Below, piece after piece: positions 3,359-33,000 of a DNA stretch of 64,000 nt. This DNA is from Ceratodon purpureus (Eukaryota > Streptophyta > Bryopsida > Pseudoditrichales > Ditrichaceae): assembly GCA_014871385.1 (NCBI GenBank), contig CM026424.1, positions 5,162,064 through 5,226,063 of the forward strand, in the 5' to 3' direction. The notes under the pieces were generated by a model that worked only from the letters and a program-made list of their open reading frames with translations, made no database searches and had not been told where the DNA came from. Both the position numbers and the translations under genes were made by a program. Numbering within the stretch: position 1 is the first letter of the stretch; each line of letters opens with the position of its first letter.

Positions 3359-3361
3359 AGA

Positions 3362-3363
<2 letters not shown>

Positions 3364-3450: not shown

Positions 3451-3451
<1 letters not shown>

Positions 3452-5322: not shown

Positions 5323-5339
5323 GTGTTTTTTAGAAACTT

Positions 5340-12080: not shown

Positions 12081-12119
12081 ACAGTTAGTGGAAAGCATTG
12101 GACTCCTTGTCATTTTTGA

Positions 12120-12559
12120 TTCTGAACTTCATTATTATGGAAGAGAAGTTGTTGTGCCTTGAAGTAGATGTAGAGATGTTTTATATTTCTTTAATGCAAA
12201 AATTTCATATAATCTAATTTCATATTGTGCACTACTCACGTTACTTGCATGAAGCTCTAGGGCTTGCGTCTCGTGTTTGTTGATTCAAATTCAAGGAATT
12301 TTTGTAGATGATTACCATCAAGTCAATTCATACAAAGCAACATATTGAAGAGTTCAAGACTTTGTGAAAACCAATGCTTCCATTAAAAGTAGTTGCAATG
12401 CAAGAATAAGTTATTTGGCAGGCTTTGCAGAAAAAAGTTGTTAGGATATTGTTAGCTAATCAGTTCATCTTTATGAAACCATCTACAGAAACAACATTCT
12501 AGTTCTATTGACAACATTTATTTTCTCATCATATCATATGGAGTGTTTTTTAAAACCTT
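12120..12559. other. AT-rich spacer, no feature seen
   Basis: Between the LTR scrap and the LINE scrap I see no gene, RNA or clear repeat. The sequence is AT-rich and all frames are short. Confidence 0.4.
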
Positions 12560-13190: not shown

Positions 13191-13256
13191 TTGGTGTATG
13201 TTTACAATATTGGTGGATTGATTTACTTGGAGCATGCGTGAACGGTCGAGTGCCGG

Positions 13257-13571
13257 GATCAATTGGCTACTGGGGCTTCGACAACGGCAGAATCACCTCC
13301 GGCCCCGCTCAAACCACCTCCCGGCCCGCAACCCCCAATGACCATTTCTTCACGCCAAACACCTTGGATTCTGGGACTCTTATCTTGGTTGGCAGTTTCT
13401 CATGATGGTGGCATAGAGGAAGAAGCAAGCGGAGAGGGTGGCATTAATGCGCATAGAGTTTACAATAGCAATTTGCAGCCAATCGAATTAGATGGATACC
13501 ATGAAAATGTTGTGAGAAATGGACAAAGTGTAGGTGTTGGTTTAAGCCTTCATGGCCTATATCATTTATAA
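13257..13571 (+). other. GC-rich open reading patch of unknown origin
   Basis: A sudden GC-rich patch (13230-13440) lies within AT-rich DNA. One frame stays open for 102 codons without an ATG start (LATGASTTAESPPAPLKPPP...). A second frame reads SIGYWGFDNGRITSGPAQTT then RPATPNDHFFTPNTLDSGTL, which looks more protein-like up to about 13398. I recognise neither. It may be a captured or broken exon of a host gene. No start, stop pair or splice set could be made. Confidence 0.25.
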
Positions 13572-13676
13572 ATAAAATTAGGCCCTAGTGTCTTTTAATC
13601 CCATAAATGCTCAATGAGATTCCCCCTGAGTCCATATTGTGTGTCCTCATTCTCAATCTCACGTGTATTTGGATTC

Positions 13677-13750
13677 GGTTGAGTAGTTTGTGACTAATGT
13701 GACTATGTTGAAAAGAGGCATTAGTCACATTAGTCACAACCTACTCAACC
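13677..13750. repeat. Near-perfect 28-bp inverted repeat (foldback hairpin)
   Basis: Left arm 13677-13704 and right arm 13723-13750 are reverse complements at 27 of 28 positions, with an 18-bp loop between them. A transcript would fold into a tight hairpin. It could be the end of a foldback element, a small hairpin RNA precursor, or a recent inversion-duplication. Nothing around it resembles a known gene. Confidence 0.9.
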
Positions 13751-14160
13751 TGGTGCTAGCTCTCACATGTTGACCTCTACGATCATCCAAGGCATCGTTA
13801 ATCTTTTTATCAGTGCTAAATGAAGGGATAGCCATGAATTATTGAGATTTATCCATGTTTTTTTAGTTTTACGGGAGTTTGCAGTTTTGCCAATGTAAAA
13901 GTCGTAAAAACTTGTAAAAGTGTCCAATGCTCACGAAACTTTATTGGAACATGCATGACATGGTGGGACTCTACAAAAAATTTGGGAACGAAGGGTTTAG
14001 GGTTTGAAAATGACGGGAGATTTAGTAAGGTGTGAGTAATATGACAAATGCTGAAAACTTAAAAGGGGCGATTGCAAGAGTGGCGATTGAAAGAAGGCGT
14101 GCATGTGCTGTGGCATGCGTGAGAAAGAAGCGCAGATCAAAGGATGGGACAGTGCCAATG

Positions 14161-14600
14161 GCCATCTCAAAAATGTTGAAGAGTAACTTTCATGAAAAAT
14201 CTACATGATTTTACATATTGTAACTTGCAACATTGCGTGTTATGTAAAAGTTACATGAAGGTTACACTTGTAACTTTCATGTGTGCTTTCCATTGTAATT
14301 ATCACATAAATGTTTTGAAAATAAATGTTACAAAATCTTTAGAGATGTTTTATATAATTTCTACATAATGTTCATGTACATGTCCTACGTAAACAGTTAT
14401 AAGATCGTGACATGAAATTTATGTGGATGTTTCAAAAGCAGTTGACGTGTAAATGTTACAAGAATTTCATGTAAAAGTTTCATAATGGTATAGTTTACAC
14501 GCTTGTTACATGCGTGTTGTAAATTTAAGATATACTTTCTTATACAAATTCCATATAACATGTACATTACAACTTCTCATTAATAAATAATGAAAATAAT
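14161..14600 (+). repeat. Interspersed repeat, copy 1 (GTTACA/TGTAAC-rich)
   Basis: It starts with a 21-bp sequence at 14161-14181 that is exactly the reverse complement of 26684-26704. Both copies then run on with many TGTAAC, GTTACA and CTACATGATTT words. The two copies face opposite ways and both stop abruptly at the shared end, so this end is a real element terminus. The other end is not clear. No coding capacity is seen; a short non-autonomous DNA transposon is the likeliest identity. Confidence 0.6.
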
Positions 14601-14791
14601 AATTTGCAAAATGATGGGGTTCTGTGATAATAATAGTAGGTACATTATACATAACCCAGGCTTTATTCACTTATACCATGAACAAGGCATACTTACAAAT
14701 TTGCATTAAAAACAATTATGATCAAATCACTTCTCACAAATCTATATAATCTGGCTGTCAACCTGCTGGTACTTATGAGGCCAAAACTGTA

Positions 14792-15964
14792 CTACTGCAA
14801 TATGCTAATAAAACAACCCTCACTCGATGGGAAGCTCACCCAAACCTCATTAACACGGCCCAAGATCTTGAATGGGCTGCTGTACTGAGCGATGGTATAA
14901 GCATCCTCACCATCCTTTGGCTCCGAATCAGTGATGTTTGCCCATTTCGAGTTCTGAAGGCTAGCCTCCAGCTGAGCTGCTTCTTGAGCAACGTTTGTGT
15001 CCTTCGCAAAGCCACTGAAAGCACGCACAGCAACGCACTTCTCATCCCAATTCTCTACTGTAAGATCAGAATCGAGAAGGGGGAGCGGTGGGCTGTCTTT
15101 GAATTCATGTGGCACAAAAAATCGGAATGCAGTGGAGCAGAAGGGACCAGCCGAGGGAACAATCCCTGTCAACACGGGTGTGGTCATTTCAACTCTAGAG
15201 TTGTTAAGATTTGCTCCTTGAATGTATTGAAACAACCTGCTCACCAAACACAATAGAAACTCGTTCAGAACCATTTTCATCCAAACTCTGGGAATCGCAT
15301 TACGAAAACCTGAAAGTTTCTAATAGTGCAATTGTGCAAGAACTGGGAGATCAGATGCGCGATATGAAACCAAGAAATGTCTGTAAGCTCCATCCAAATC
15401 TGCCCTTGCATAAGCTTGCCTAACGACAACTCACGAACCATTTAATATTAACCATGTACTGGTTAAGCTATAATTTCGAGTTGCACACTCAATAATAACT
15501 TCCCTCCACAAGTTCGACAACGACGGAATCAGAAAAAACTGTGCAACGTCATTCACTCGATCACCAGTGCATAAGCATTTCCAACAGAAAACTGTTCTAC
15601 GTTCGACTATCCACGAATACGAGAAGATGGCCACACAAAGAGACCATTCCACACGCAGGATCTGAATAAGGCACGGCGACCTGATCTACTATCCCCAGTA
15701 AACATTCCACTCAATGGCTACAAAAGACAAGAAATCACAAGGTTCAAGAACATACTTGTGGAATCCAATCTGCGTCGCCTTGCTGAAGGAAATATCCTCC
15801 ACCGGCGTCGTAATCCATGTCGAAGGACGGTACAGCCGGATCTCAAAGTCCGATTCCGCATGCACCACAGTATATGGCGGGCTCTCAATGCTGTCCGCCC
15901 CAGCTGCAGCGCACACCACGGCAGCCATAGCCAGCACCATCCACACGCTCAACTTGGGCCCCAT
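14792..15964 (-). CDS. SOUL family haem-binding protein, secreted type
   Basis: Two exons: 15964-15756 and 15236-14792, joined through a GT-AG intron of 519 bp; the product is 217 residues. The start is the ATG at 15964 (MGPKLSVWMVLAMAAVVCAA). The first 22 or so residues form a signal peptide ending near AAAGA. The SOUL domain follows: SPPYTVVHAESDFEIRLYRP, then GFHKLFQYIQGANLNNSRVE across the splice, MTTPVLTGIVPSAGPFC, FRFFVPHEF, VAVRAFSGFA, and a final Trp-containing strand NEVWVSF. SOUL/HEBP proteins bind haem or tetrapyrroles; vacuolar, cytosolic and chloroplast forms exist in plants. The signal peptide points to the secretory path here. The splice restores the KLFQYIQG motif, which supports the intron call. 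Confidence 0.9.
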
Positions 15965-16416
15965 CCTCAATCAAAACACCAACACGCACCTCTGCAGCAC
16001 AGCAACCGCAAAGAAAAAAACTCTAGTAACTCCTCTTGTCCAAACCACAAAAACAGACCTCTAACCCACATGTCAGAAAAATCCATCTTCAACATGTGCC
16101 CACGTAAAACAACGAAAACATCATCTGACATAACCCTGCCATCACCCAAGAAACCAACATCCGGTTACCTCAACAATAACGCAACATACAACATGGATAC
16201 GTCAAGAATTGACATGAACAAGGTGACCACCGACTCATGTCGTTAACCCTCGCCGTCACATCCAGGCACCGAGCTTATCTTACCTGGCACCAATTGTAGA
16301 CAGGATTACGAAGTGTGATCGTGCACTTCAGTTGTTCCCGGCCGTTTTAAAGGCGAGGATGCGTGGGGGAGAAGATTCGCCGAGTATGTATTCAATACTT
16401 GATGAGATGCTGTTTG

Positions 16417-16890
16417 ATTGGTACATCGAAGGCTCAATGAACGAGCAAATCTTCACTAACCAAATGATCTCACTCACCACTACCGACTGAACACTAAACC
16501 ACGACAACAACCAGCGTCAAGACAGCTTGTTTTCCTGTATGGTAATACTGAATCCTTTGCAGAATTAAGTTTCCATTCGATAGACTGAAGCGGCTCAGTG
16601 AACCAGCAAATCTTCACTAACCACAAGAGATCGCACGCTGATCATGATTTAGAGTAGCGTGAGAACAGCATACCTTGCAAGCTAATTTTCTCCCAGGATT
16701 ACGTGACTGATCGGTACATTGAACGCTCAATGAACGAGCAATCTTCACTGGCAACATAATAGCACACACGGATTTCACTAACTATAGATCGAATGAAGCC
16801 TCGAACGCTAATCACGACATTTAGAATAGCATTAAGACATGTTGGTATAAATTACCTTGGAAGCTAAATCCTTGCCAGGATTTGGATTTC
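16417..16890. repeat. Three degenerate repeat units upstream of the SOUL gene
   Basis: The phrase GCTCAATGAACGAGCAAATC (or a near variant) with a following TTCACTAAC recurs at about 16431, 16592 and 16720. Units 2 and 3 also share a later block: GCTGATCATGATTTAGAGTAGC versus GCTAATCACGACATTTAGAA, then TACCTTGCAAGCTAATTTTC versus TACCTTGGAAGCTAAATCC, then CCAGGATT. The units are about 125-165 bp. On the minus strand the second block reads as an exon-end-like AAG followed by GTA, so each unit carries a potential 5' splice site. Confidence 0.68.
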
Positions 16891-17080
16891 GTTCCGGTGC
16901 AATTTTCGCAGAGGCCTGCTTGCAGTTCGCCCGCCATAGCTTCGCCAACTTCCCGAGCGACGACAATCCCGGCGACGCGAATTTCAACCAGTTCAAAAAA
17001 ATTTGCGAACGCATCAGAAATGCGTGAAGAGAAGGGCCCGGTTGATCAACATCTGTTTCTTTAAAAATTGGTGAAGCCAC
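16848..17080 (-). other. Possible unplaced exon or 5' leader, minus strand
   Basis: This is an open frame of about 77 codons from an ATG at 17080 to a donor-like AAG/GTAATT at about 16857 (MASPIFKETDVDQPGPSLHA, then KLAKLWRANCKQASAKIAPE). I do not recognise the protein. It lies between the 3' end of the PRXL2 gene and the SOUL gene, both on the same strand. It could be a non-conserved first exon, a leader of SOUL, or chance. The downstream repeat units contain copies of its donor-like end. Confidence 0.25.
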
Positions 17081-17369
17081 TGATCAAGTGGTCAATCAGC
17101 TTCTCATAAAAATATGAAAAATCCTGTCACACGATTCAATCAAATGAAAGCCGGCAACATCCGAGAGTTCAAGCTTTAGTTCTTCTACATGTGGTATTAT
17201 ATCCGCTCAGAGCATATTCTAGAGAAGTTCTTTCACCGCAAAAATCTTCACTTTGAAAGTGTGTCTCTCTACACATGTGAAGCAAACAACATCCTCTAAT
17301 AATCCATAAATGCAATGGTAAAAATAATTCATCTATACAGCTATCTACCGACTCACTTGGGTGCAATTG

Positions 17370-18876
17370 TTAACAGTAGAGCTTTTCATTCTGCTCCACC
17401 ATCAACGTCGTCAGACTCAGGAAACAGAAGACTGTCCATGACAGCTTACTAATTAGCTTGGCTTGAATCCAAGCCAAGTGCTTCAAGGATTTCTGCGTTC
17501 GTTGGCTGATCACCAAGTCCTTTTGACGGTGGTCGAGCAGCATCTCTCCTCCTTTCGCCATCACAAAAGTTGCTCCTAATTGCCTGCGGATAAACAAACA
17601 GTTCTATCAACTTCAAGAGAAGGACAACATATTTCCATTCCAAAACTAGCCAGTCACGGATGTTGCGTCTGACGATCTGACCCAGACTGGAAAGAGACTG
17701 ATTTTGCACCATTCTGCTGCTCTTGCCTAAATCTTACAAGGACTGCGTTAGATTAGTCCTCGGAAGGATATTATACAAAATTGACTACGATTAGACACCT
17801 TCTTTCACTTGTAAGAAGTAAGTCGTCATCGTTTCCTGAATTCATTCAAAATGATTTCATTTGCATAGAACTCACACTCTTGGACCAAACCTCCATATGA
17901 AAGCCAAGGAAGAAGTATGTACCTGCCGTCACCCTGAAAGTTACCAGGCGTGTCCTTGGTTTTCTCTGCAGCTTCCTTGACCGACTTGTTGGCAAAAAGC
18001 ATCATAAATGTTCCCACCCATCCCACCTTTGTGAGTGCCAGGGCATTGTGTATCTTCTTCCCGTTGTCAATGTACAACTCACTCTTCCAGTACTTCTTCT
18101 TCTCGAACTCCTCCATGCCAAACTTCTCAAGTCCTGCGCATGACAAACAAATACAACCCTGCCTTATGTCCAAGTTCCCTGGAATTATTTGACTTGTTTC
18201 ATCTTCAACGATAGGGGAAGTCTGAAATGAAACAAAAGTTACATGAGTAAACATACCAATGCCAATGACTCGGACATTGTTAGCCTCCAACTGAGGCAGC
18301 ATTTTGGCCATTTCGACGGATTGACCGCGGCAAAGCTGGCAGCCGAATCTTCGAAGCAAGTGAATCACCACCGGCTGTACAAAACATAACACGGCATCAT
18401 GGAGTCAGTCCCACTTGCTACCTTAAAGGCCAAACCTCTGTTTACTTCCCAGAAACTTCAAAAACGGTGCAACTCCTCTTATAACATTTGCTGACAGTAG
18501 GCAATAAACCCTAATTTCTATTAACATAATATGAAGCAGATTTCCAACCCACTTGTGGGTGTAGGAGTTTTTCCTGTGCATGTAAGTGCAATCCAAGAAT
18601 TTTGAGCAGCTATCAAACTGTGCACGATTTGGGACGTAAATGTAAATACCTGATCCTCCCAGAAGGAGCCCAACTTGACACTTGTAGAATCTCCAGGGCC
18701 GCGGATCTTCTCCAACTCAATGTCCTTGATTGCGTCAGCAACCGCCCTTGAACCTTTCTCAGTCCCCGTAGCTGCATCTCACAAACAAAATCCCATCAGT
18801 CTCTCCCTCAAGCTCCGGCATCCTAACGAAACAGCGACAAACCAGCACCAGTTGCACGCAAATTCTTCCCCTCCAT
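17370..18876 (-). CDS. PRXL2 / AhpC-TSA-like thioredoxin-fold protein
   Basis: Five exons were read by eye: 18876-18843, 18771-18650, 18374-18257, 18133-17923 and 17583 onward; phases agree at every GT-AG junction. It starts MEGKNLRATGA and continues IRGPGDSTSVKLGSFWEDQ. The thioredoxin-like core is PVVIHLLRRFGCQLCRGQSV with a CxxC pair (C64, C67). Next come GLEKFGMEEF, VGWVGTFMMLFAN, and the signature QLGATFVMAKGGEMLLDHRQ. Members of this family (PRXL2/FAM213, prostamide-synthase-like) are presumed redox enzymes; plant roles are little known. No transit peptide is seen. Oddity: the expected ending GDQPTNAEILEALGLD (stop 17449) lies in a different frame from DHRQ. The change falls at an A-run near 17522, consistent with one missing A or an error. 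Without a shift the protein runs on about 40 unrelated residues to 17370 (232 residues). Confidence 0.8.
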
Positions 18877-19554
18877 ACCTTCCTCTAAGACACACCCTGA
18901 ACGCGCAAAGCCAAACTCAAAATAGAGATCCCAATCCAGCAGAACTCGAAGGTAGACAAACACACCCAAACCTCAAAAATTTGAGCTCAACAGCTAAGTC
19001 ACAACAACAACAACAACAACAGACCACCTTCCGCACCCAAAGTGCTGTTCAAAACTTCACCTCACTACCATCAAACAACCAGCTCCAACACATATTCCCA
19101 TCCACATTGCTCCATATCCTCAAAAATCCAGGAACATCACAAACCATACAATTCTCTGTAACACTTAATTCCCACACAATCCCACATATCCCTTCCCATA
19201 TCCCTCAACAACCAAGCAAGAAACAGTTACACAAAACATACGGCGATGGGCCGACGAAAATGAGCATTCTTGAATAAATCGTCACTTTCCTTTTAAGCCT
19301 TTCAAATTCTGACTTTTACCTTCCTCATATGCCTATCACCCCCTTCTTATATACCAATTTTAAAAAGTTGTGATCGTATCCAATATGGAATTCAGTATTT
19401 GTTGGGGAATTCAGCCAGACATAGTGAATACTTTATTACCTTTCAAGACTATTGCATAAATACATTTTATTGTCCTCTATATTGCCTGATAAGTACTTCT
19501 TATATTATAGAATGCTCATTCCGCAAATGATATCGTTTGAAGACAATTTTACCA
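18877..19554. other. PRXL2 upstream region
   Basis: This is the 5' flank of the PRXL2 gene. It has a short AAC/CAA trinucleotide run (about 19003-19021) that reads as GTT repeats on the gene's sense strand. A long open frame on the opposite strand (18675-19277) has skewed composition and overlaps two PRXL2 exons, so it is taken as chance. No clear TATA box was picked. Confidence 0.4.
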
Positions 19555-19800
19555 ATAGTTTTAATCTATTATTTTGAAATTATCGATAGTTTTAATTATT
19601 TAATTTTGAAACTATTAACTAATTTTGTAATTCTCAATAGTTTTAATTAATTAATTTTGAAATTATCAATAGTTTTAAATAATTAATTTTAAAACTATTT
19701 TGAAGGAAATTTCATCAATACTTTTAATTAATTAATTTTGAAATTATTTTATTCAAATTAAACTAGTTTAAAAAGTCTTCAAAACTATAATAGTTTTTAT
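19555..19800. repeat. AT-rich tandem repeat, about 5 degenerate units
   Basis: The phrase ATAGTTTTAATTAATTAATT with a following TTGAAATTATC (with variants) recurs about five times, at spacings of about 32-53 bp. Some units contain perfect TTAATTAA palindromes. The following 19800-20240 is AT-rich DNA without a recognisable feature. Confidence 0.8.
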
Positions 19801-20325
19801 AGTTTATTTCAAAAATGGCACTGTAATGAAATGTTTTTAATCTTATATAAAGAATGATTGTTACATTTTTGCCATCTCATGTTTTATTAATTTAATTTGG
19901 TTAATTCAACACAACACACCTTGAACACAAGTAATGCATTATGAAGGAATGACCTAGCTGTAAGAACAATTATCGTAATGTCCTCAAAATTGCTAATTTC
20001 TGGAATGCCATGTAGTAATTTAGATTAGAACTTATCAATAATGTATTGAATGCAAACCTCAAATATGTTGTCAACCGGATCTGACAATTCTATAATTCCT
20101 TTTAGTTAATTGTAAGATATCCATTACTAAAGGACCAAAAACACTTGTGTCTTGGTAACAATATACTTAAGAAGTCCTCTACACATTTCTATAATATTAA
20201 TCCCAATGTTGTCATCAATAGTGTTCTAATCTACTTCAGTCTAAGACACCCGGGAGTTGCATGTCGGTGCTCCCGAGGTCGAGGAGGAGTGTTGGAAAGG
20301 TTCCAAAAAGGTTCTAGAAGGGTGC

Positions 20326-20482
20326 GACCTCGAAAAGACTGGAGATAGAAACTAGAAAGACTGGAGATAGAAAGTAAAAGACTTGAGATAGAAAGTAAAA
20401 AGACTGGAGATAGAAAGTAAAAGGACTGGAGATAGAAGGTAAAAGGACTTGAGATAGAAAGTAAAAGGACTTGAGATAGACT
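20326..20482. repeat. Minisatellite of about 20-bp units (GACTGGAGATAGAAAGTAAA)
   Basis: About seven to eight units of GACTGGAGATAGAAAGTAAA or GACTTGAGATAGAAAGTAAA lie head to tail, with single-base differences between units. It lies about 260 bp upstream of the Plavaka-like transposase start, within the presumed 5' region of that element. Subterminal repeat arrays are typical of CACTA-group elements, where they bind an element-encoded protein; here that role is only a guess. Confidence 0.85.
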
Positions 20483-20742
20483 CTAGTTCCTTTTGGAAAG
20501 GAAATAGTATTCAAAGGCTAGGTGAGTCACTTATTATGTGATTCTCATCTTTATGGTTGGTTGGTGATCCTCAGATAATATATTTTGGTTTATATTTATT
20601 ATATTGTAAATTTTGAGTCTTTAAGCTAAATAAGCTAAAAGGTTCTGGTCAACGCATTATAGGTTCTCTTATTAATATTTTTAGTTCATGAATTGTTCTT
20701 CTAATAAACTTACAATTGTCCTCATAGTTTAAAGTTTCAAAA

Positions 20743-23700
20743 ATGCCGATTTGTGATATGTGTAAAATGAATTGTAAAACTAGATCTGCATTTAGAGAAC
20801 ATAAAAAAAGATGTGAAATCATTACACGTGGTCAATCATCAGTGTTGTCCACTCGGCTCAATGTCAATAGAAATGTTAGAAGAAGACCAATAAATATAGA
20901 TGCTGAAAGAGGAAATTTAAACCAATTTTTAGAAATGGATATCAATGTCCAAAATCAGTCTAATATAGGAACAAGCCAACAACAACCTGAAACTTCTATT
21001 CCATCATGGTGGATAGCTGACTCTTTAACAAATCAAGGAGAAGAAGAAAGTGTTCTAAATAATGTATCAGATGAATCCTTCAATTCCACCTATCATACTA
21101 TAAATGCGTTCCGAAGTTGCAGGAACAATGAAGGCTTGTCTAATGCAGATATGGACTCACTCTTGGGCACAATTTTCAATCCAAGTGTGGATATAAATAA
21201 AGTGGTTGTAAGAAACTCTTAAGATGTCCAAAAGTGGGAAGAAAAAGTATATTCCAAAGAAGATGTAAGTTTCAATTTTTAATACTTATGACAAGAATGC
21301 AAGTTTTTATTATAAAAATTGATTTTATTCCAAATATATTTTTTATATTTTTCACATTTCTAAAATGTGTTTGTGACTTTTCAGGGATGGACAAATCAAA
21401 TTATTTCTGAAGTAGGTGGCCCTGAGTTAACTTTACATTATAGGAATCCTATTTTGGCATTGGCTTCACTGTTTTCATCACCTAAAAATAGTGACGGTTT
21501 TAAAGAGGTGTTTGAATTAGTGAAAGACAATGATGGTGAAAGAATGTACACAACACCAAATACATGCGAGTGGTGGGAGACCATGGAGGTAAAAATTGCT
21601 TATTTCAAAGTACAAATAAAACAATACGTTTGGAATTTTTACTTTATTCAATGATTGTAGAAAATATTCTTAATTGTTTGTATTGTATTATTTGTGTGCA
21701 GAAAGTTGTAGATTGTGATGACAGTGTCATTGCTCCTCTAATATTTTACAGCGATCAAACCGTTTTATCTGGAAACATGCGTGTTAGTGGTTATCCTTTA
21801 GTTTTGACGTTAGGAAACATTTCAAGTGAAAAAAGACAAGAACCAGAAGGCCGTGTTTTATTAGCGGTGTTACCAATCCTTCCAAGCGAAACATGTTTAT
21901 AACCCATACATTTCTAATAATGAGTCTTGCAAATGAATATTTCACTTTAGTTATTTTTTTAAATCAATGCAATCATGATGCATATATCCAATAATAAGAG
22001 TGTTATTGATAATGTTCATATGCTTCAAATATTTAATTATACCTTATTTTATCAATAGGAATAATAAATCATATTTTAATTATATATTATTAGTAATAAG
22101 TTGTGCTTTTTGTTATAATGTGATTATGTGCAGAGAGCATTGTCAAAATACGCTATCTTCATGCATGCTTGAAAATAATATTGCAACCATTAAAAAATGC
22201 AAGCTACAGGTATGATACATAATTTTATTGTGAGCTCATGAGTATATTGATTAGATTAGTACAATAATTTGTTTTTATGAAATTATTGGACATTGGAATT
22301 ACTTTGTGGAAAAAGTTTATATTAATTTTAAATTGTATGTACTTGAAAAATGTCACAGCGGCTTGACGTTGGTGAATCCTCTTGGAGTTGCAAGATTTGT
22401 CTTCCCATTATTATTTGCATATGTTTGCGACCACCCTGAAGGATGTAAGGTGAGACTTTAGTTTTTCATGATTGCCATCTACAAAGTGTATTTGTAACAA
22501 GTATTGTTTTAACTAAAGGATCTATATTTGTTTTACTATTATATATAATATTATATGTGAATAGGAAATATATGATAATAGTACATTTGTTTTTCAAACG
22601 TTATAAGTAAATTAAATATTTTGGTCAATAAATTGTTATATTTGGGCTATTATTTCAGATCACATGTACATATGATTCAAACAAGAGCCAATACCCTTGT
22701 AGCATGTGCTGGTGCAAATCTGAAAATTTGGGCATGGTTGATGAGGTAAATGAAGCTCGAACTGTAGAAAGAATGAAACGCATTGCCCAACAAATGCAGG
22801 CAGCACACAATGAAAGATTTCAAAAAATTATTTCAAAGCAATGGTCTGTGCATCATGTAGAGGTAAGTGACATTATTTTTATATTTGTGTATTTTTTTTA
22901 AATATTTTTTTCAAAAAAGTCAACATTTGGCATGATACTATGTAATTTGTATTTTTAAGTTTTTGTTTTAAAGTACGTTAAAATAAGGATTATAATCATG
23001 GAGAGTTTGTTGTTTTTGTTTTTAGAATGCACTATGGGGATTCAATGGAGAAAACAATGCCATAGGTAATCCTTATCTTGCTTTGCACGTAGATATACTC
23101 CATCAAAGTGACCTGGGTATTTTTAAAATGTTGGTTAACATTACAAGGGACATGTCATCAAAAGCTACCCTGGAAGAAATGGATAGACGTCTTTTTATTA
23201 TGAAAGAGAAATCTAGGTTCTCTTCTTTTCGTATCCCTGGTTCTCTAAGAGCCAGATATTTCTCTGACCAAGTGAACTTTGCTGGATTTGAGCATCGGTC
23301 AGTTATGCAGGTACGTTAAATATCTTAAATATTTTAAAACAAAGTATGGTCATATTGATAGTTTTTTTTTTTTTTTTAATTTTTTTTAATAAAGAAAATT
23401 GATTATTTTAATGTTTTTAAAAATCCAATATGTTTGAGATATCAATTGTTGCCTGCATTTATATACATATATACATATATATACATATATGAATATATAT
23501 GTATACATGTTAAATCATTTTGATATAAAATGAAACAAAAATTGTGCCATTGTAACATGCTATTGCAGGTGATTGTGTTTTGTATGATTGGACTGATTCC
23601 AAGAAACGTCATCAAATGCTTCACAACATTTTTGGAGTGGTATATGTGTGCTACCAGAAATGCTTCTCAGACAAACAGAAGCTTGGATACAATGGACACA

Positions 23701-25377
23701 CTAATGAAAAGGTAAATTTTTGTGATTATTAAAAAATTAGTCTTAGTACAATGAATTTTATTATCATGACAGTGAACAAAAATTGTAGGAATTTTAATTT
23801 TAATTTATATGTACTAATCAATGGTGATGGAAAATGTGAACAGGACTTTGGTGGAATTCAAAGATCATTTACTGCAGTGGCAAAAATCTGATTTTAATAG
23901 TGCAAAGATTCATGCCATGGTTCATTTTAGTTCATCTATTAAAAGGGCAGGTGTACCTTGGGAGTACAGTTCAAATATGTTTGAACAAAAGCACATTGCA
24001 TTAATGAAAAAGGCGTATAGATCTAGTAACAAAAGAAATGCAGATGAACAAATAGTAAAATACCACTGCAGATTAGAAGCATTAAGGGCGGCCGAAAAAG
24101 ATATTGAAGCTTTGGAGAATCAAGCACATAGCAAAGACACCGCACTTAAAAAGGTGAGAGTTTCAATTCAGTTAAAAATTTAATCTAAATTTATGAGATA
24201 AGAATATGTCATGTGTATTTTTTTATTTATTTTTGTATAAAATGTTTTACTCTTATTGATTTTATAAAAAATAAAAAAACATTTATTGTTATCTAAATTA
24301 TTACATATTTATATAGTTTACGAAGTCTTGAATATGTTGAATATAATGGAGGCTTTGCATTTTAAATTGTAGGAGCAAAAGAAGACAATAATTTATTTAA
24401 ATTATCATTGTGCAGGCCATCAAAGAAGGCGAGAATGTGCTGGCACGGGTGGATTTTAATGTACACAGGTTGTGGCTACGAAATGAAATTCCAAGTTCAA
24501 TTCCTACTGTTATACAGGAAAGAAGATCTTATTCAAAGGCTGTGATACCTAAAAAAGTTCAAATTTTGTTGAAAACACAACCAGAAATTAGTGACCATCT
24601 AATCACAGCTATTGCTACCTATGAAGTAGAGCACAACATAACTATTGGAGAGGTACGTCTAAGTTTACTTCAAAATGCTTCAATTTACAATTTATTGGAA
24701 AACATTTTGGGAAATAAATTAAGTCTATAAGTAATATATATAAATTACCATTATCATTAATCGTATATTAATGTTTGTATATATGAAATATACATAAAAC
24801 TTCTGTTTGCTAATACTATAAATTACAATGAGTATGTGGATTAAAAATGAGTATTAATTATGAAATAATAATTCAGGTTATGAGAGTATGTACAGCAATT
24901 GCTATTCCAGGTGGCCCAAGTGATGAGCACGGTGAGTGGCCAATGTATGCTCGTGCAACACACAAGTTTTTTGATTTGCCTTGGTAGAGGAGTGTAGAAT
25001 TGGACACCACGGAGGTGGTACAATTTTCCAATGTCAAATATGGTGAGATCAGATTATTATTACATTGCACAGGATGTTCTTACATTGAAGCGGATGGATC
25101 ACAAGTAGCAGATCATACTCTTGACCTTGCATTCATCCGTCCCTATTATGAGCTAGAATCTGATGGCACTACCGATATTACTCAGTGCAGAATGCTATCA
25201 TGGAATAGACCGACGAACGACATGCGTAGTACTCATGCTAGTAGTAGCTCCCAATTGCATAACATTTCTAATTATCTATTGGTAGATGTTCAGAAGATCT
25301 TAAAAGTGATTCATGTAGTCCCATATTTTGGAGATGTTGATGTAAACAAGGTTTTCATAAACAAGTGGAAATTTTAA
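20743..25377 (+). mobile_element. Plavaka-like (CACTA superfamily) transposase gene, about 11 exons
   Basis: Exons by eye: 20743-21264, 21385-21588, 21702-about 21895, 22134-22209, 22359-22449, 22659-22862, 23026-23310, 23569-23711, 23844-24153, 24416-24652 and 24877-25377; almost all have GT-AG limits and matching phase. The protein begins with a C2H2 finger (CDMCKMNCKTRSAFREHKKRC, less its last residue). Then come the blocks typical of Plavaka transposases: PLIFYSDQTVLSGNMRVSGY with PLVLTLGNIS, VNPLGVARFVFPLLFAYVCD, HVDILHQSDLGIFKMLVNI, FAGFEHRSVMQ, FEQKHIALMKKAYRSSNKR, and a C-terminal VIHVVPYFGDVDVNKVFINK. The copy is slightly broken. There is an in-frame TAA just before the end of exon 1 (near 21220), a frame change in exon 4 (near 22173), and a TAG near 24986. 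Terminal repeats were not found. Plavaka is best known from basidiomycete fungi. Confidence 0.86.
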
Positions 25378-25900
25378 AATCCTAAAATTTAAAATTCAAC
25401 TTAGATTGTTTTAGTGTATAATTTGCTTATGAAAATATATAAATAAATAAATATGTATATATATCCAACGTCCAACGTACTAGGAAGAATCTACCTGTAG
25501 GATCTAGTACCTAACTTGTACATGTATGTATACGCAAAATTTTAGATTGTAAATCCTCACCATTTGGAAGATTGTAAGGTTTGAATTTGAGAAAAAATTA
25601 TTTTTGGTATTGCCTGGCAGGGACAACGACTTCTTGGAGAGTGAAACAGACAATTTTTAGAGATCATGTGGGTGGAGGCTCTTCTGATTTTCATTTAAAA
25701 ATGAGTTGGGAGTATGCTCCCAAAATTTGAGGAGCATACAGTATACAGAAGTACAGAAAACCCACATTTTTGGTGACGAGGGTCATATTAAATGTCCATA
25801 CACTGGCTCCTTTTGAACACTACAAATGCCAATCTCAATCTTCTAATTTTCAAAATCCCAACGGTGAGAACGTCAATTCGTACTAACAATTTTTTTTCCT
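25378..25900. other. Transposon 3' flank, no gene
   Basis: AT-rich DNA after the transposase stop. It contains a short perfect palindrome (TGGGAG-TATG-CTCCCA, about 25708-25723) followed by GGAGCATAC, which repeats one arm with its spacer inverted. This may lie near the 3' end of the Plavaka-like element, but no terminal motif matching the 5' side was found. Confidence 0.35.
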
Positions 25901-26704
25901 AAACCCTAAATCCACTAAAAAAATAAATCCAAAAGAGATATGATTTTCACAACATATTATGAAACGACTTTGTTGATTTATTTATTTATACTCAATGTGG
26001 CTATGATTTATTTATTTATTTTTATTGCTAAAAGGGCCACGCAATGACTTCTTTGTTTTTGCAAGAAGGGCCTCAAAATGGCTTTATTGTTGAACGATTT
26101 ATGTAACGTCTATATAAATTTTATGTAACATCTATAGAATTCTTCCATATTAATTTATGTAACACGCCCATGATTCTTCCAAGTGAAATCGTAAGTAACA
26201 TCTATGTAAACCTTGTACAAATCTTATTCAAAACTTATTTTGGATTATGCTGCGATAACATGTAACTTTTTTATGCATGATATGTACATGTGCATTCATT
26301 ACATTTTAATACAATCAACATAAAGATCATGTTTCTTCAAGATTATGCAAACCAATCAAAATTGTTATATGATATTTTCATTTGAACGATTTATGTAAAT
26401 GTCATATAAAGTATACAAGCAAAAGTTTGCATTAAGAACATGTGCAAAGGCCATTTATAATTTCTACACAAAAAAATTATACTTTTTATATAAGAGTTAC
26501 ATATTCTTTCCAATCATGAAATATTTGTAACATTTACATGATTTGGGTGTAGATTGCACATTTCTAAATAGTATATGCAAATCACAATGGAGATTTTATG
26601 TAGATGTTACATGGTCAGTATATTGTTTTGCTGTAAATGTCACAACTTGTAACATCTACATGATTTCCATGGTGCAAGTTACACTTCAACATTTTTGAGA
26701 TGGC
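25900..26704 (-). repeat. Interspersed repeat, copy 2 (GTTACA/TGTAAC-rich)
   Basis: This is the second copy of the family seen at 14161, in the opposite direction. The shared 21-bp terminus is at 26684-26704. Inward it repeats words such as TGTAACATCTACATGATT and ATGTAAATGTTACA. It ends sharply where GC-rich DNA upstream of Lhca1 begins, so the Lhca1 promoter directly abuts this element. The inner limit at about 25900 is approximate. Confidence 0.6.
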
Positions 26705-27035
26705 AGGGCCCCGACGGATGCTGGCAGGGAGGGGGGAGCAGAGCAACGACAGAAACTGGGGAAGGGGGAGCCTGGGCTGCGGGGGGGGGGGGGGGTGTCT
26801 GCGGGGCCGGGACTCAATCCGGAGGCGGCCAATGGGAGAAAGTGGGGGCGATTCCCGGCCTCTTATCCCACTCTCCACCACCCGCCAGGATAATAGCCCC
26901 GCCAGGATCCCTCCGACTTAGTGCAGCGCCCCCGACTCGCTCCCCGCATTCCGATCCATCCTGCCACCCACACCCACACTCACTCACATTGCCCCGGACC
27001 CAACCCCCCCTCTCGCACCCCCTCTCGGATCCAGC
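26705..27035 (+). promoter_or_regulatory. Lhca1 upstream region
   Basis: GC-rich DNA between the transposon end and the Lhca1 ATG. It holds a run of 14 G (about 26781-26794), a CCAAT box (GCCAATGG near 26828) and a TTATCCC at about 26864, which read on the other strand is GGGATAA, an I-box-like light-response motif. A second GGATAATAG occurs near 26887. No TATA box is clear. Light control is what one expects for this gene family, and is inferred. Confidence 0.45.
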
Positions 27036-28461
27036 ATGGCCTCCGCCATGGCCACTGCCGCTGCCCAGGTGAGCCGCGTGGTCACGGGCGTCGCCCCCGC
27101 TTCTTCGCACAAGTCCAGCTTCTTCGCCGGCTCCACCTCCGTCTCCATGCTGGGCTGCAGCAATGGCAGCCGTGTGTGCATGGCCGAGTGGCTGCCGGGC
27201 AACCCCCGCCCCGCCTACCTCGACGGCTCCGCCCCCGGGTAAGTCACTCTCCCCCTCTCTGCACTTCCTGCCTTCCTGCCTGTGAGTTCCCGTCCTGCAG
27301 AATTGCCGTCATGGATTCCACGCCCGCCCCATGGCATGTCAGCTGTGGTGCGAGGGCACTCGGGCTGTGCCTGCACTGTGAGGCCTCTAGACCCGCTATT
27401 GAATTCCGCACTCCATGCCCGCATGGGCTCGGCATTTGCCACCGTGCGTCGACGAGCCCGCGTCGGCTGCCGGATCGGTATGTCATGATACGCCGGAGCG
27501 GGATTAGGTCATAGAATCTCTCATGCTCGCTTGGAGCGCGTGGCATTGCACGGCGCGACGCCTCGTTCCATTCTGTGTACCTGCCGGGTGATTCGTCCAG
27601 ATCTTATCGGTGAAGGAGATCGCAAGGATCACATGCTGCCGGTGCTGCAATGTGCGCCTGATTTCTGCGGCGGTACGCAGGAGGTGTACGATGGAACTAG
27701 GTCGAGGTCCTTAACGTGACTATGCTGGGCCTGCCTCCTGAGCACGCGGCAGTGTGGAATTCGCCTGACCAGAGACGCGTCATGTGTGCAGAGATTTCGG
27801 CTTCGACCCGTTGGGTTTGGGAGAGGTGCCTGAGAACTTGGAGCGGTTCAAGGAGTCGGAGCTCATCCACGCTCGCTGGGCCATGCTCGCCGTTGTGAGT
27901 GGCCTTCGATGACCTGTGTCGACCCAATTTTTGATTCTGAATCGACTTGCGCCGGTTTCCGTAGCATGATGAGTGTTTGGGATCGTGGACTGCGGAGTTC
28001 TGACTTGGATTGAGTGTTTTGTGCAGCCCGGAGTGTTGATCCCGGAGGCCCTCGGATATGGCAACTGGGTGTCGGCACAGAAGTGGGCCGCCACCCCCGG
28101 TGGCCAGGCCACTTACTTGGGCAATGCAGTGCCGTGGGGTAACCTACCCATCATCCTGGCCGTGGAGTTCCTGGCCCTTGCCTTCGCAGAGTCGCAGAGG
28201 AACGGTGAGGCCGACGCCGAGAAGAGGAAGTACCCAGGCGGTCCCTTCGACCCATTGGGCTTCTCCAAGGGCGCTAACCTCGAGGAGCTGAAGCTGAAGG
28301 AGATCAAGAACGGTCGTCTGGCCCTGGTCGCCTTCTTGGGCTTCGTCGTGCAAGCCATCGCGTACCCTGGAACCGGGCCGCTGGAGAACCTGAAGACCCA
28401 CCTGGCCGACCCATGGCACCAAACCATCGCACAGGTGCTGATCCCCCGATCAGTGGTGTAG
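27036..28461 (+). CDS. LHCA1: Photosystem I light-harvesting chlorophyll a/b protein, Lhca1 type
   Basis: Three exons: 27036-27238, 27792-27894 and 28027-28461; GT-AG introns of 553 and 132 bp; product 246 residues. The first 45 or so residues are a Ser/Ala-rich chloroplast transit peptide. The mature part starts near [20 protein letters not shown]. Membrane helix 1 carries [20 protein letters not shown] (chlorophyll ligands Glu and His, the Arg partner). Helix 2 is [19 protein letters not shown]. Helix 3 is [19 protein letters not shown] with the ENGR-type motif, followed by [20 protein letters not shown]. The [19 protein letters not shown] stretch and the LADPWH ending match Lhca1 rather than Lhca2-4. 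The protein binds chlorophyll a/b and carotenoids in the PSI antenna belt. The ATG at 27036 is preferred because it gives a complete transit peptide. Codons are strongly GC-rich, unlike the surrounding DNA. Confidence 0.96.
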
Positions 28462-30089
28462 ATGCTAAACTCGTCGAGTCTTCATTGCGTAGTTGCTGCC
28501 GTGGTAGTCGGAGAGATGATTTTGCTTCCCCCAGGTGTGGTGGTTGACATATGCACGCCATTGTAATATCATGAGGCTGCTCAATTCGCTGACCTCCCTT
28601 GTACACAAGACAAGCTTTTGCACAGAATCTATATTCGGCCCTTATCCGGAATGACAGTTTGTTTGGAGATTTATAGAATAACAGTCCTTGCGCAGGCGAT
28701 GCCCAGTGACAAGTGTGACCCTGGCTTCCTTACGTCAGGTCGTCGTCCAGAAGGAATCGACATGAATCGCGATTGAAATCAGTTCACAGTAGTCAAGCTC
28801 CGGCACATGTTAGGCAAGGGGAATGGGCATGCGATGACGGTCATGTGGGACTGGTGTTAGAATAATTCGGATCACTGCATAATTTATACACTAAACTGTT
28901 TTTCGAGGTGGAATATGCTGACACGCTTAATATATTTTAGGAAGTGAAGAAAAATGAATTGATAATTCAAATGGCTGGAAGCGGTGTCTCAATACACATG
29001 AATGCAATGTCGTTGACATGAATAAATCAATCGTGATGATCGTAGACAGAATCCGCAGTGAAGATATAACTGAATGTGAATCATCTGTCTGACACTGAAC
29101 ATACGCATTTCACACAATCATAATGATGCGGAGAGGAAAAAGAAAATGAAAAGAACGTAAACGTTTCGACCATTCCGTATAGAAAATTGTCAGACACTTG
29201 TTTACACACTCTCCACAGTTTCCCACTTGAAATGACACAAAGTTTGTACACAGTCAGCGTTGACGGTACTGCGAACTCAAACGGCTGTAAACCAAATCTT
29301 TTCTTGAAGCGCAGCAGCAGCGAATTGTCATGTCCAGGAGAAAAAAATTGCCACTGTTCAACATATACTACGCACGCGTTCATAACTTGTCCAACACTTG
29401 CGCGGTTTGTATGTATTTGAAATCTGCCGTCAGGTTTCAATGAGAGAACCAGTTACCAAAGCCTTCTGGTAGATACCATTACCTTCGGTCGTGGTCAGGA
29501 TTATGTTCCAAGTACGCCCATCTTCCAGTTCAGAAGGTATTCTCTGACTGTTACTCGAGAGGCATATAAGCCCACGTTAGAAAACCCCCGTGAACTGCTA
29601 TGGCGAATTGCGATAGCCTTATGAAATATTTTCTCCGCACTCGATCGCTTGGTTTCAAACCCCCATCGCCAAAAGTCATCTTGTTGACATTAGGCAATCC
29701 CTTTCTTATGCTTGGACGCGTGACTCTGTAAGCGTCGGATCGGAGCTTCCAAAGCTTCCCCTGTTGTCATCGTTGTAAATCTAGGTCGCTTTAATCACAG
29801 ATCTGGGCTTAGAAGGATTATCCTTGGGTCCTTATGAACTAACTTGTAGCACGTATAGCCAGTACTGACAACCAGAGGTTCTCTATGCTCCTCAGTTTGC
29901 GCTGGGCATCGAAGATGACATATTGCCAATGTGCTATTTGTCCGCTCTCGTCTCACTAGTCGCAAACTGTTGGGTGAGGCCCAAATCAACTAATGTCCAC
30001 CACCTCACCACCTCTAGAGATGAGTTCATCTTGCGGGATTGGAGATTTCCAAACACGACCAAACAAAGCAATCTTATCTCCGACTAAGT
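28462..30089. other. Intergenic DNA between Lhca1 and the receptor kinase
   Basis: The two genes converge here, so both 3' UTRs lie in this stretch. AATATCATG near 28565 and AGAATAACAG near 28675 are AT-rich signals after the Lhca1 stop. Open frames of up to 119 codons (29081-29440) match nothing I know and have no neighbour support. I see no RNA gene or mobile element. Confidence 0.45.
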
Positions 30090-33000
30090 TCACCTTTCGG
30101 AATCAGGTGAATCGCACACCTGCTCACTTGACCGAGGAAGCTTCCTCAACATCTCCACGATGGCTTTCATCGTCGGTCGATCGGCTGGATTCTCCATTGT
30201 GCATAGCAAGGCGATCTGTTGCACTCGGAGCATTTCATCTTTGTCAGCCAAATTCGTCGAGCGCAGAAGCCAGGGGTCAAGGACAGATTCACTCATTTGG
30301 CCCTCGTTTTCTTGCACCCTCGTCCGGACCCACTCAGCAACGTGCATGATGTCACCAAAACATGGGTCCACTGGCTGCTTCCCAGTTAACAGCTCCAGCA
30401 ACAGCACGCCATAGGAATACACATCCAGCTTCGGCGTTACCTTCGCTCCATACCCAGCCTCTGCAAAACGGAATAACAACAATTTACGTTTTTACATTTA
30501 CATACAATGGTAAGAAAGAGTACCGAACGCAAATAGAAGATAGGACGCATACGTTCCTTGCACTCTTCAAGGTAAAACATACCATTATTAACAAACAGAA
30601 AATGTCATAAAAGCAACCTAAATGACTTGGTGACGCAGGAGACTCACCGGGGGCAATATAGCCACAAGTTCCCGACACAACTAACGTTGAAGTAATGCTA
30701 GCATCCTGGGGCTGCATCTCGAGCACCTTAGCGATGCCAAAATCTGAGATACGGGGCTCTAAATCATCGTTTAGAAGCACATTACTGGCCTTTATATCTC
30801 TATGAACTATCTGTGGACTGTAATCATGGTGAAGATACGCTAATCCATGCGCTACACCTTCTGCAATACGAAGCCTTAACTTCCAGTTCAGGGCTAGACC
30901 CACTTCCTTGTGATGTAACGCCGCATGAAGGTCCCCATTGGGTACATAATCGTACAAAAGAAGTCCTACCTCTCCCCATTTACAAAACCCTAGTAACTTT
31001 ACGAGGTTTCGGTGCTTGGCGTTCCCTATGGTCTCTATCTCTCTCCAAAAACTTTTATGAACTACACTATTCTCATCCAGGGATTCTATCTTCTTCACCA
31101 CGATGGGTGTACCGGATGCCAACGTGGCCTTGTACACTATCCCATGACCACCTCTTCCAATAATAAAACGATCACTCAAATTTCGTGTCACTGTCATTAT
31201 CTCTTCAAACGTGACAACGAAGCCAGGCGAGCTCATGAGCTCAACTGCAGACTCCAACGGCGCTGGCTCTACGTCCTTCCTTCCAGCCTGCCAGCAATGC
31301 CAGCAACACCAGAAAAGGCAGACCAGAAGCAAGAGTAATACCAGTGTACAACCAAGTATTATGCCCAATATTACCCCCACGGTGAGCTTCTTTCCTCCTG
31401 AAGAACTCGTAGGTGTAATTGAGCTCGAGATGACGCATTGAGGTTGAGTAGTGGTGGTGTACTGAAGGCACAAACCTGGGTTACCCTCAAAAGCACTTGG
31501 ATTGCTACCGAGGAGCTTAGCCCAACTGGAAGGCAGTAAGCCTATTAGATGGTTGTATGAAATGTTCACCCAAAGAAGGGAGACCAATCCCCCAAGTTCA
31601 CCTGGCACTTCGCCTGTGAGGGCGTTATGTGAGAGGTCGAGAATCTCGAGCTGATCTAGCTTCCCCAGCTCTGATGGGATTGAACCGGTGTATCCCCCGT
31701 AGCTCAAGTTGAGATTCTTCAGTGTGGAAATTGTCCCGATTTCTGCTGAAACGGGTGCATTCCAAGGATTCTGCGCAAGGTTAAGTTCCTCTAAGTTGCT
31801 CCAGGACTCATACATGTTAGGATCCACCGTCCCTGTGAAATTGTTGCCTTGGAGGTATAAATTCCGCAGTCTAGAAATGTTGGCAAGTCCAACAGGAATG
31901 GCTCCACTCAGGGAATTGAAGCTGAGGTCTAAACGAAACAACTTCACACAGCTTCCGATGGTGGCTGGCATCTCACCTGTGAAATTGTTCATCGACAAGT
32001 CCAAGCTCTCCAGATTCCGTAACTCGGTGAACACCAGCGAGGAAAGATCACCTGTCAGAGCATTCTCACTAAGAGCCAAGTTGCTAAGATGGCTATAAGA
32101 TCCCAAGCCCTTTGGTAGTGGACCCTCCAGTTGATTCCTTGAAAGGTCCAGAAACTCAAGCAACGAGTTTCTCCCGAATTTTTCCGGAACCTTCGTAAAC
32201 AGGTTGTCTGAAGCGCGGAACCGAACCAAGGTTGGGCACGAAGCAAGAGATGAAGGCACGGGGCCTTCAAACTTATTCAGATAAATATCCACGAAGTCCA
32301 AAGTCCCACCTTTGCACAATCCCTCCGGCAAGGTCCCACTGAAGGAGTTGTTCCGTAACACAAGAGTGGTCAGATTGCTTAACATTCCCAGATCGGCAGG
32401 AAGAGGTCCAGACATGTAATTATCAAACAAGTAAATGTCAGTCAAAGTTGTAATCTTGGAGATTCCAGGTGGGACACTTCCAGTAAGGCTGTTGCTATTC
32501 AACACAAGCTCCGTCAGGTTCTTCAGATTCCCAATCTCCTCTGGAACTGGGCCTGAAAAGTTGTTGTAACTTATTCGCAAGCTAACCAAATCCGTCAACT
32601 TCCCAATTTCCGAAGGAATAGGACCCGAGAACATGTTGTTGGCCAAGTACAGGCTTTTAAGTTCTGTGCAGTTGAAAAGCTCCACCGGGAGAGGCCCCGA
32701 CATGGTGTTGTTGTGCACATCCAGCTCCATGAGATCCACCAATTTCCCAAACGACCCAGGGATGGAGCCGGTGAGATAATTCAGATACAAAATACATACC
32801 TCGAGGGATTTGCAATCTCCAAGCTCCGCTGGAATTGGTCCCTCCAGTTTGTTCGAGTATAAGTGAAGCTCGAGCATGTTCTGCAATTGCCCTAATTCTG
32901 GAGGTATGCCGCCAATGAGATTATTCGTAGACAGGTACAGCTTCTCCACCATAGCCAAGTTGCCAAGCTCGGCGGGGATGGTTCCCGTAAAGTTGTTGTC

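What the first reader, a model, noticed from the sequence alone, without database searches (positions are those of the whole stretch)
20743..25377. Plavaka-like transposase, nearly complete, in plant DNA
Intron-rich gene with the N-terminal C2H2 finger, the YSDQT/LTLGNI block, the VDILHQ block, the FEQKHIALMKKAYR block and the VVPYFG...VNK ending that mark Plavaka transposases. I know Plavaka mainly as a basidiomycete CACTA relative. A well-preserved intron-bearing copy beside Lhca1 raises the question of an old plant lineage or a fungus-to-plant transfer. Only about three breaks are visible, so it moved fairly recently.
Basis: partly seen in the sequence, partly recalled or inferred. Interest (0 to 1): 0.82.

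Follow-up and report, generated by a model that had tools for sequence, protein, structure and literature searches.

The report
Moss Plavaka transposon carrying host genes
A jumping DNA element of a kind best known from mushrooms sits just in front of a photosynthesis gene in a moss, it moved there recently, and it and its sister copies have taken up pieces of several ordinary moss genes.

Summary
Confirmed and enlarged. The transposase gene at 20743-25377 is real: 11 exons, GT-AG introns, 921 codons with three stops and no frameshift; Pfam Plavaka 137.3 bits, E 9e-40, no TNP2 or KDZ hit. It is the right-hand part of a 12,540-bp element, window 14163-26702, with 27-bp terminal inverted repeats and 2-bp target duplications in 10 of 11 copies read at both ends. 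The assembly fits the moss Ceratodon purpureus. A 99.9% identical inverted duplicate of the flanks, chlorophyll-binding gene included, keeps the empty site with a single GC, so the element moved after that duplication. The left half holds two captured host genes with introns, a SOUL haem-binding and a peroxiredoxin-like gene; chromosomal sources were found at 95% and 97.5%. Sister copies carry a glyoxalase I piece or a fourth piece instead, sources also found. Best reading: a gene-capturing ("Pack-like") Plavaka family, moved in trans. Fungus-to-plant transfer could not be tested; two other Plavaka lineages of this genome with largely shared intron positions favour long residence.

The parts
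14163..26702 (+). whole Plavaka element, 12,540 bp, target duplication GC on both sides
   Evidence: termini and TSD; empty site:
14163..14189 (+). 5' terminal inverted repeat (27 bp, 26 of 27 matching the other end)
26676..26702 (-). 3' terminal inverted repeat
14190..14612 (.). left subterminal region with short repeats of the TGTAACATYTACAT type
26053..26675 (.). right subterminal region with repeats of the same type in both orientations
14813..16376 (-). captured host DNA: SOUL haem-binding gene with 5' region and intron, last codons missing; source C4:5774208-5775775, 95%
17137..19249 (-). captured host DNA: peroxiredoxin-like (AhpC-TSA_2) gene with introns, start codon changed in this copy; source C1:4460209-4462319, 97.5%
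20743..25377 (+). Plavaka transposase gene, exons 20743-21264, 21385-21588, 21702-21894, 22134-22209, 22359-22449, 22659-22862, 23026-23310, 23569-23711, 23844-24153, 24416-24652, 24877-25377; three in-frame stops
21702..21894 (+). exon with first D (YSDQT)
   Evidence: placed by eye, by the layout stated in PMC12730594; invariant in three moss lineages
22359..22862 (+). exons with second D (CDHPEG) and C(2)C (CSMCWC)
   Evidence: placed by eye; layout; invariant in three moss lineages
23844..24153 (+). exon with H(3)H (HAMVH) and, 20 residues further, the last E (FEQKH)
   Evidence: placed by eye, spacing; layout
11837..14162 (.). left part of duplicated flank; inverted copy at C4:5112976-5115301
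26703..30169 (.). right part of duplicated flank with the chlorophyll a/b-binding gene (ATG at 27036, 333 bp from the element); inverted copy at C4:5109457-5112977

Best explanation
A cut-and-paste DNA transposon of the Plavaka kind in a moss (assembly fits Ceratodon purpureus). A DDE transposase recognises the 27-bp ends, and probably the repeats beside them, and inserts the element with a 2-bp target duplication. This copy's own transposase is broken, so it was most likely moved by another copy's enzyme. In earlier rounds the interior of the family was replaced by host DNA, most likely when a gap inside the element was repaired by copying from unrelated chromosomal genes; the chimaeric elements then multiplied. 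Shown: ends, target duplications, empty site, captured pieces with their sources, presence of the same pieces in several copies. Inferred: movement in trans, gap repair as the capture route, function of the subterminal repeats.
For: Plavaka profile over 304 residues. D, D, C(2)C, H(3)H, E layout as described for Plavaka in PMC12730594 (passages; placed by eye). 2-bp TSD in 10 of 11 copies with both ends read; 15 exact end matches in the genome, control 0. Empty site in a 99.9% duplicate. Subterminal motif: 22 of 24 places (two mismatches allowed) lie in the outer 1.1 kb of 12.5 kb. Captured pieces keep introns; each has one matching locus outside the copies: SOUL 95%, peroxiredoxin-like 97.5%, glyoxalase I 96%, in five other copies plus a part in a sixth, and a fourth piece 97% in one copy; the stretches fetched round the four sources hold no exact terminal repeat. 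In trans: all five copies with the full glyoxalase piece have the same three ruined splice donors, yet lie at different places, four of them with matching 2-bp TSDs (AA, AA, CT, GT); the window copy is 2.4% from its nearest sister (104 of 4376 sites) but sits in a duplicate only 0.1% diverged.
Against: Ends are CATCTCA...TGAGATG, not exactly the CATCA...TGATG given for PlavakaB. One copy (C2:14.97 Mb) shows no TSD. Of eight capture junctions only five could be compared with native and source sequence: three share 4, 5 and 6 bp, one shares 1 bp (no more than chance) and one none, with two extra bases; so the support for microhomology-guided template switching is slight. The empty site could also be a precise excision from the sister locus, or flank identity could reflect gene conversion. 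Capture by aberrant excision of neighbouring elements (the route described for Pack-CACTA) is not excluded.
Confidence: 0.85

Rival explanations
1. A Plavaka element that came into the plant line by transfer from a fungus, perhaps a symbiont, and has since spread in this moss.
For: By title, 8 of the 10 papers listed for Plavaka are on fungi; one is on a green alga and none on a land plant.
Against: Three lineages in this genome at 44-45% amino-acid identity with most judged intron positions shared point to a long stay or to an intron-bearing common ancestor; the sources of the captured pieces lie in the same assembly.
Confidence: 0.15
2. An ordinary plant CACTA/EnSpm element that took up host genes (Pack-CACTA).
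For: Same broad clade, subterminal repeats and gene capture as in plant CACTA elements.
Against: No TNP2-type Pfam hit, Plavaka at E 9e-40; termini do not read CACTA and target duplications are 2 bp, not 3 (CACTA features recalled, 3 bp also).
Confidence: 0.04
3. The host genes were not captured by the element; the element landed in or next to pre-existing gene duplicates.
For: Gene duplicates are common in plants (general knowledge).
Against: The gene pieces lie between the same terminal repeats in several insertions and replace element sequence that other copies still have: SOUL in four copies and cut short at window 14973 in two more, the peroxiredoxin-like gene in two, the glyoxalase piece in five plus one partial.
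Confidence: 0.03
4. The captured genes are kept as working genes that serve the host or the element.
For: In the window's SOUL piece, coding sites differ from the source at 8 of 633, non-coding at 42 of 919 (Fisher p 0.0002), and its reading frame is open apart from the lost end. Of six pairs among four captured copies, one has significantly fewer coding than non-coding differences (C6:96 and C12, p 0.034).
Against: Private changes among the four captured copies are 13 in 633 coding and 27 in 912 non-coding sites (p 0.33), five of the 13 at second codon positions, so the contrast with the source is better explained by constraint on the source or by differences older than capture. The window's peroxiredoxin-like piece has a changed start codon and the SOUL piece lacks its last codons.
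Confidence: 0.08

Closest known systems
PlavakaB elements of Agaricomycotina (PMC12730594, 2025; passages seen)
   Same: Plavaka transposase, 2-bp (or 3-bp) target duplications, CATC...GATG at the very ends, D-D-C(2)C-H(3-4)H-E layout, accessory gene possible
   Different: in a moss; ends CATCTCA...TGAGATG; carries pieces of host genes, and no TET/JBP gene was recognised (not searched for separately)
Pack-CACTA / Pack-TYPE elements of plants (PMC13317346 passages; PMC8903248 start of abstract in listing, and a term search without hits for mosses)
   Same: captured gene pieces between transposon ends, multiplied by transposition
   Different: Plavaka ends and transposase; the element still carries its own, broken, full-length transposase gene and is 12.5 kb
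EnSpm-Plavaka of the green alga Auxenochlorella (PMC12633428; one passage)
   Same: Plavaka in the green lineage, called potentially active there
   Different: no gene capture mentioned in that passage; not compared by sequence
Plavaka giant repeats of Amoebidium (PMC11244446; passages)
   Same: Plavaka transposase beside cargo genes
   Different: there clusters of intron-poor genes up to 50 kb, many for tyrosine recombinases, not host genes with introns

Membership tests
Plavaka | Plavaka transposase profile PF18759 | tested here: met
   137.3 bits, cut-off 26.3, model 20-322 of 325
Plavaka | D, D, E residues with C(2)C and H(3-4)H between second D and E | tested here: met
   YSDQT, CDHPEG, CSMCWC, HAMVH, FEQKH; placed by eye, second H to E 20 residues, layout; both D and the C(2)C are invariant in two other moss lineages, whose loci were not read as far as H(3)H and E
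Plavaka | 2-bp target duplication (PlavakaA) or 2 or 3 bp (PlavakaB) | tested here: met
   2 bp in 10 of 11 copies with both ends read; single GC at empty site
Plavaka | termini TGT..ACA (PlavakaA) or CATCA..TGATG (PlavakaB) | tested here: inconclusive
   CATCTCA..TGAGATG: shares CATC/GATG with PlavakaB but not the fifth base pair
Plavaka | falls inside the Plavaka clade in a transposase tree | not testable with these tools
   no fungal Plavaka proteins held; searches found no relative
CACTA/EnSpm (plant TNP2 type) | TNP2-type transposase profile | tested here: not met
   only Plavaka above cut-off in Pfam
CACTA/EnSpm (plant TNP2 type) | CACTA ends and 3-bp target duplication | tested here: not met
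   CATCT ends, 2 bp
KDZ (Kyakuja, Dileera, Zisupton) | KDZ profile; 8-bp target duplication for Zisupton | tested here: not met
   no KDZ hit; 2 bp
Pack-TYPE element | host gene pieces between transposon ends, source genes elsewhere in the genome | tested here: met
Pack-TYPE element | moved by transposase supplied in trans | tested here: inconclusive
   five glyoxalase copies share ruined splice sites yet lie at different places; no mobilisation assay possible

The most novel reading that the evidence does not exclude
An old, non-fungal Plavaka lineage in mosses works as a host-gene shuttle: it repeatedly replaces its own interior with nearly whole genes, 5' regions included, and deposits them elsewhere, also on the large sex chromosome, making new sex-linked gene copies.
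Probability: 0.2. Interest if true: 0.78.

Novelty: new variant of a known kind. Interest (0 to 1): 0.62.

Why it matters
In the papers listed, Plavaka is described mostly from fungi, and the plant gene-capture papers seen deal with other superfamilies. Here both come together in a moss, with ends, target duplications, an empty site and the source genes all readable, so gene capture by Plavaka can be studied step by step. Copies of autosomal genes carried onto the 110-Mb contig, probably a sex chromosome, offer a testable route by which such chromosomes gain genes. The insertion 333 bp before a chlorophyll-binding gene, with a near-identical twin gene without it 60 kb away, is a ready-made test of promoter effects.

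Tried and rejected
Relatives outside the genome: viral contigs and bacterial/archaeal genome contigs gave pattern matches (96 and 71 stretches) but no confirmed relative; a PDB profile search gave nothing; NCBIfam gave nothing for the transposase. So no tree with fungal or other plant sequences could be built.

Selection on captured genes: an apparent constraint on the SOUL piece was rejected as evidence of function because changes after spread look neutral. An early placing of the H(3-4)H motif at HVDILH (my notebook) was given up on re-checking: its first H is N in the L006 lineage, while HAMVH has the right place before E. Some frame differences listed for other copies lie next to introns and may be alignment artefacts; they were not used, while the three ruined splice donors were looked at directly. 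The captured glyoxalase piece itself gave no Pfam hit in three unspliced fragments (proteins 5-7); its name rests on 96% DNA identity to the source, whose joined exons match. The fourth piece and its source gave no Pfam hit.

Rows dropped from the TSD count: C6:107.6 Mb and C11:13.88 Mb (5' end not found in the stretch fetched), C7:18.67 and C6:67.06 Mb (only 5' end read), C8:3.33 Mb (only 3' end read). Other partial copies were not read at their ends. The two ends of C6:64.7 Mb are 21.5 kb apart and were taken as one insertion with others nested in it.

Literature, judged from titles and starts of abstracts: Plavaka (11 papers, 10 listed), Ceratodon with transposable elements or CACTA or DNA transposon (10 of 17, 5 of 5, 2 of 2 listed), gene capture with CACTA and Pack (15 of 18), gene capture with bryophyte (8 of 8), transduplication with moss (6 of 6). 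None is an account of gene capture by Plavaka in a plant. The Ceratodon genome paper is not among those listed, and most subscription papers are not held. A term search in the Sphagnum genome paper shows CACTA as an abundant repeat class there and nothing on gene capture by transposons.
Full report
Observation. A model with 11 exons between 20743 and 25377 has GT-AG borders at all ten introns and codes for 921 residues with three in-frame stops and no frameshift. Read with X at the stops, it matches Pfam Plavaka (PF18759) at 137.3 bits, E 9e-40, residues 164-467, model positions 20-322 of 325; no other family passes its cut-off. The layout given for Plavaka in PMC12730594 (second D, C(2)C, H(3-4)H, last E; passages seen) can be placed by eye: first D in YSDQT, second D in CDHPEG, C(2)C in CSMCWC, H(3)H in HAMVH and E in FEQKH, 20 residues after the second H. 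The N-terminal finger reads C-x2-C...H-x3-C, and Pfam zf-met stays below its cut-off.

Host. The window is C4:5162064-5226063 of an assembly of 362,488,568 bases in 151 contigs; contig C6 is 110,524,308 bases, 30.5% of the assembly. PMC8000587 (passages) gives Ceratodon purpureus a 360-Mb genome with U and V sex chromosomes over 100 Mb each, about 30% of the genome. The species is therefore an inference, and that C6 is a sex chromosome (the V) is inferred and recalled. The neighbour gene is a chlorophyll a/b-binding protein, so the DNA is from a green plant, not a fungal contaminant. Plavaka-profile matches, counted exon by exon and as a lower bound, number 42 in this genome, 23 of them on C6, and the profile rings in 0 of 14 control genomes.

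Ends. A DNA search with 19300-26700 found copies at 94-97% identity running to the right end of the query, some with pieces to its left end. Many end together at about 26702. The reverse complement of that end occurs once more in the window, at 14163, with one mismatch in 21; no shuffle of 100 gave any match. The element is thus 14163-26702, 12,540 bp, with 27-bp terminal repeats, 26 of 27 matching. In the genome the terminal pattern has 15 exact matches and the pattern read backwards none; two of them bound a 118-bp mini-element on C1. Short TGTAACATYTACAT-like repeats crowd the outer 1.1 kb: 10 of 10 places with one mismatch allowed and 22 of 24 with two. This resembles the subterminal repeats of CACTA elements (established knowledge); that they bind transposase is inferred.

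Target duplications. Both ends were read for 11 copies: 10 have matching 2-bp flanks (window GC, C6:96.3 GC, C13:5.2 AA, C7:6.6 AA, C1:27.6 GT, C12:8.8 GT, C6:53.7 TT, C6:64.7 TA, C6:84.6 CT, C11:13.5 TT), and C2:14.97, whose 5' end is altered, has none. Five more were read at one end at most and are not counted.

Empty site. Window 11837-14162 and 26703-30169 recur, inverted, at C4:5109457-5115301, without the element. The junction there reads one GC where the window has one on each side of the element. Over the duplicated 5.8 kb there are six mismatches and one 54-bp indel. So the element entered the window locus after the duplication, or left the sister locus precisely; either way it moved recently. 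Gene conversion of both flanks is a caveat. The insertion lies 333 bp before the start codon of the chlorophyll-binding gene.

Captured genes. The left half of the element contains, on the minus strand, a SOUL haem-binding gene (PF04832, 123.9 and 39.6 bits for two pieces) and a peroxiredoxin-like gene (PF13911, 37.2 bits). A genome search with 13700-19500 gave source loci: window 17137-19249 matches C1:4460209-4462319 at 97.5%, and window 14813-16376 matches C4:5774208-5775775 at 95%. Introns and 5' regions are kept, so the copying was from DNA. No exact terminal repeat lies in the stretches fetched round the sources. The SOUL piece lacks the source's last codons, and the peroxiredoxin-like piece in the window has a changed start codon, unlike the copy at C6:96.3 Mb.

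Other copies differ in cargo. The copy at C6:96.3 Mb has both genes; those at C6:53.7 and C12:8.8 Mb have SOUL but no listed match to the peroxiredoxin-like piece; matches at C6:64.7 and C7:18.67 Mb stop within SOUL, both at window 14973. In C2, C7, C6:84, C1 and C13 the SOUL place is taken by a 1.06-kb piece, with a partial match at C6:67; its source is C2:19796841-19797895, 96%. The source's joined exons match glyoxalase (PF00903 30.1 bits; TIGR00068 81.3 bits, below that model's cut-off of 120 for the whole protein); the captured fragments alone gave no Pfam hit. In C6:53.7 a fourth piece, source C7:1967468-1968294 at 97%, interrupts 1.08 kb of native sequence that the five glyoxalase copies still have; neither it nor its source gave a Pfam hit. 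In the window the peroxiredoxin-like piece replaced that whole native stretch. Of eight capture junctions five could be compared with native and source: three share 4, 5 and 6 bp, one shares 1 bp, one shares none and has two extra bases; the other three lack a readable native state.

How it probably works. The pieces replaced element sequence rather than adding to it and keep introns; this fits repair of a gap in the element with the repair strand switching to other chromosomal templates. That step is inferred and the junctions support it only slightly. The published alternative for Pack-CACTA is aberrant excision of neighbouring elements (PMC13317346, passages). Movement in trans is inferred from two facts. 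The five glyoxalase copies share three destroyed splice donors but lie at different places, and positions 1, 2, 3 and introns differ between two of them (C7 and C13) without sign of constraint (16/922, 27/921, 24/920, 34/1852). The window copy has 104 differences in 4376 sites from its nearest sister and three stops, yet sits in a duplicate 0.1% diverged. Between C6:64.7 and three other copies compared, positions 1 and 2 change less than position 3 and introns, so the transposase was under constraint earlier.

Are the captured genes used? The window's SOUL coding sites differ from the source at 8 of 633 against 42 of 919 non-coding (p 0.0002), but among the four captured copies private changes are 13 in 633 coding and 27 in 912 non-coding sites (p 0.33), five of the 13 at second positions; one of the six pairs does show fewer coding changes (p 0.034). 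I read this as drift after capture.

Origin. Two other moss Plavaka lineages (L001; L005/L006) are 44% and 45% identical to this one over what could be aligned. L001 shares five of seven intron positions that could be judged and L005/L006 five of six; the intron after LPILPSET is in neither (positions judged by eye). This favours a long stay in the moss line. A transfer from a fungus is not excluded because no fungal Plavaka could be compared.

Verdict. A Plavaka element, a member by profile, motif layout and target duplication, with terminal sequence close to but not identical with PlavakaB, and with captured host genes: a new variant of a known kind.

Noticed in passing
window 788-5340, minus strand: Long frames resembling a non-LTR retrotransposon (endonuclease-like and reverse-transcriptase-like stretches), judged by eye only.
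   Followed up: no
window 40166-43826: A 3.66-kb repeat; besides the chlorophyll-gene duplicate, 28 of 33 matched places listed (72-93% identity, some being pieces of one copy, a lower bound) lie on C6.
   Followed up: no
window 25462-25961: A 0.5-kb stretch inside the element matches 18 other listed places at 77-79%; it may be an older repeat.
   Followed up: no
window 38190-38662 and 57997-58462: Inverted repeats in four pieces of 67-219 bp, 81-89% complementary, 19-20 kb apart.
   Followed up: no
G000:C1:14362678-14362795: A 118-bp mini-element bounded by the same terminal repeats.
   Followed up: no
G000:C11:13527252-13528674: Short internally deleted relative of the element, 85% identical at its ends, TSD TT.
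   Followed up: partly
window 28940: 54-bp indel between the two otherwise almost identical chlorophyll-binding gene duplicates.
   Followed up: no
window 30484-33231, minus strand: 915-codon open frame of a leucine-rich-repeat receptor kinase type, by eye.
   Followed up: no
window 20225-20483: Tandem repeat around GGAGATAGAAAGTAAAAG where another copy (L029) has about 0.67 kb of element sequence.
   Followed up: partly
window 6090-6940: About 0.8 kb that matches many places on most chromosomes at 70-74%.
   Followed up: no
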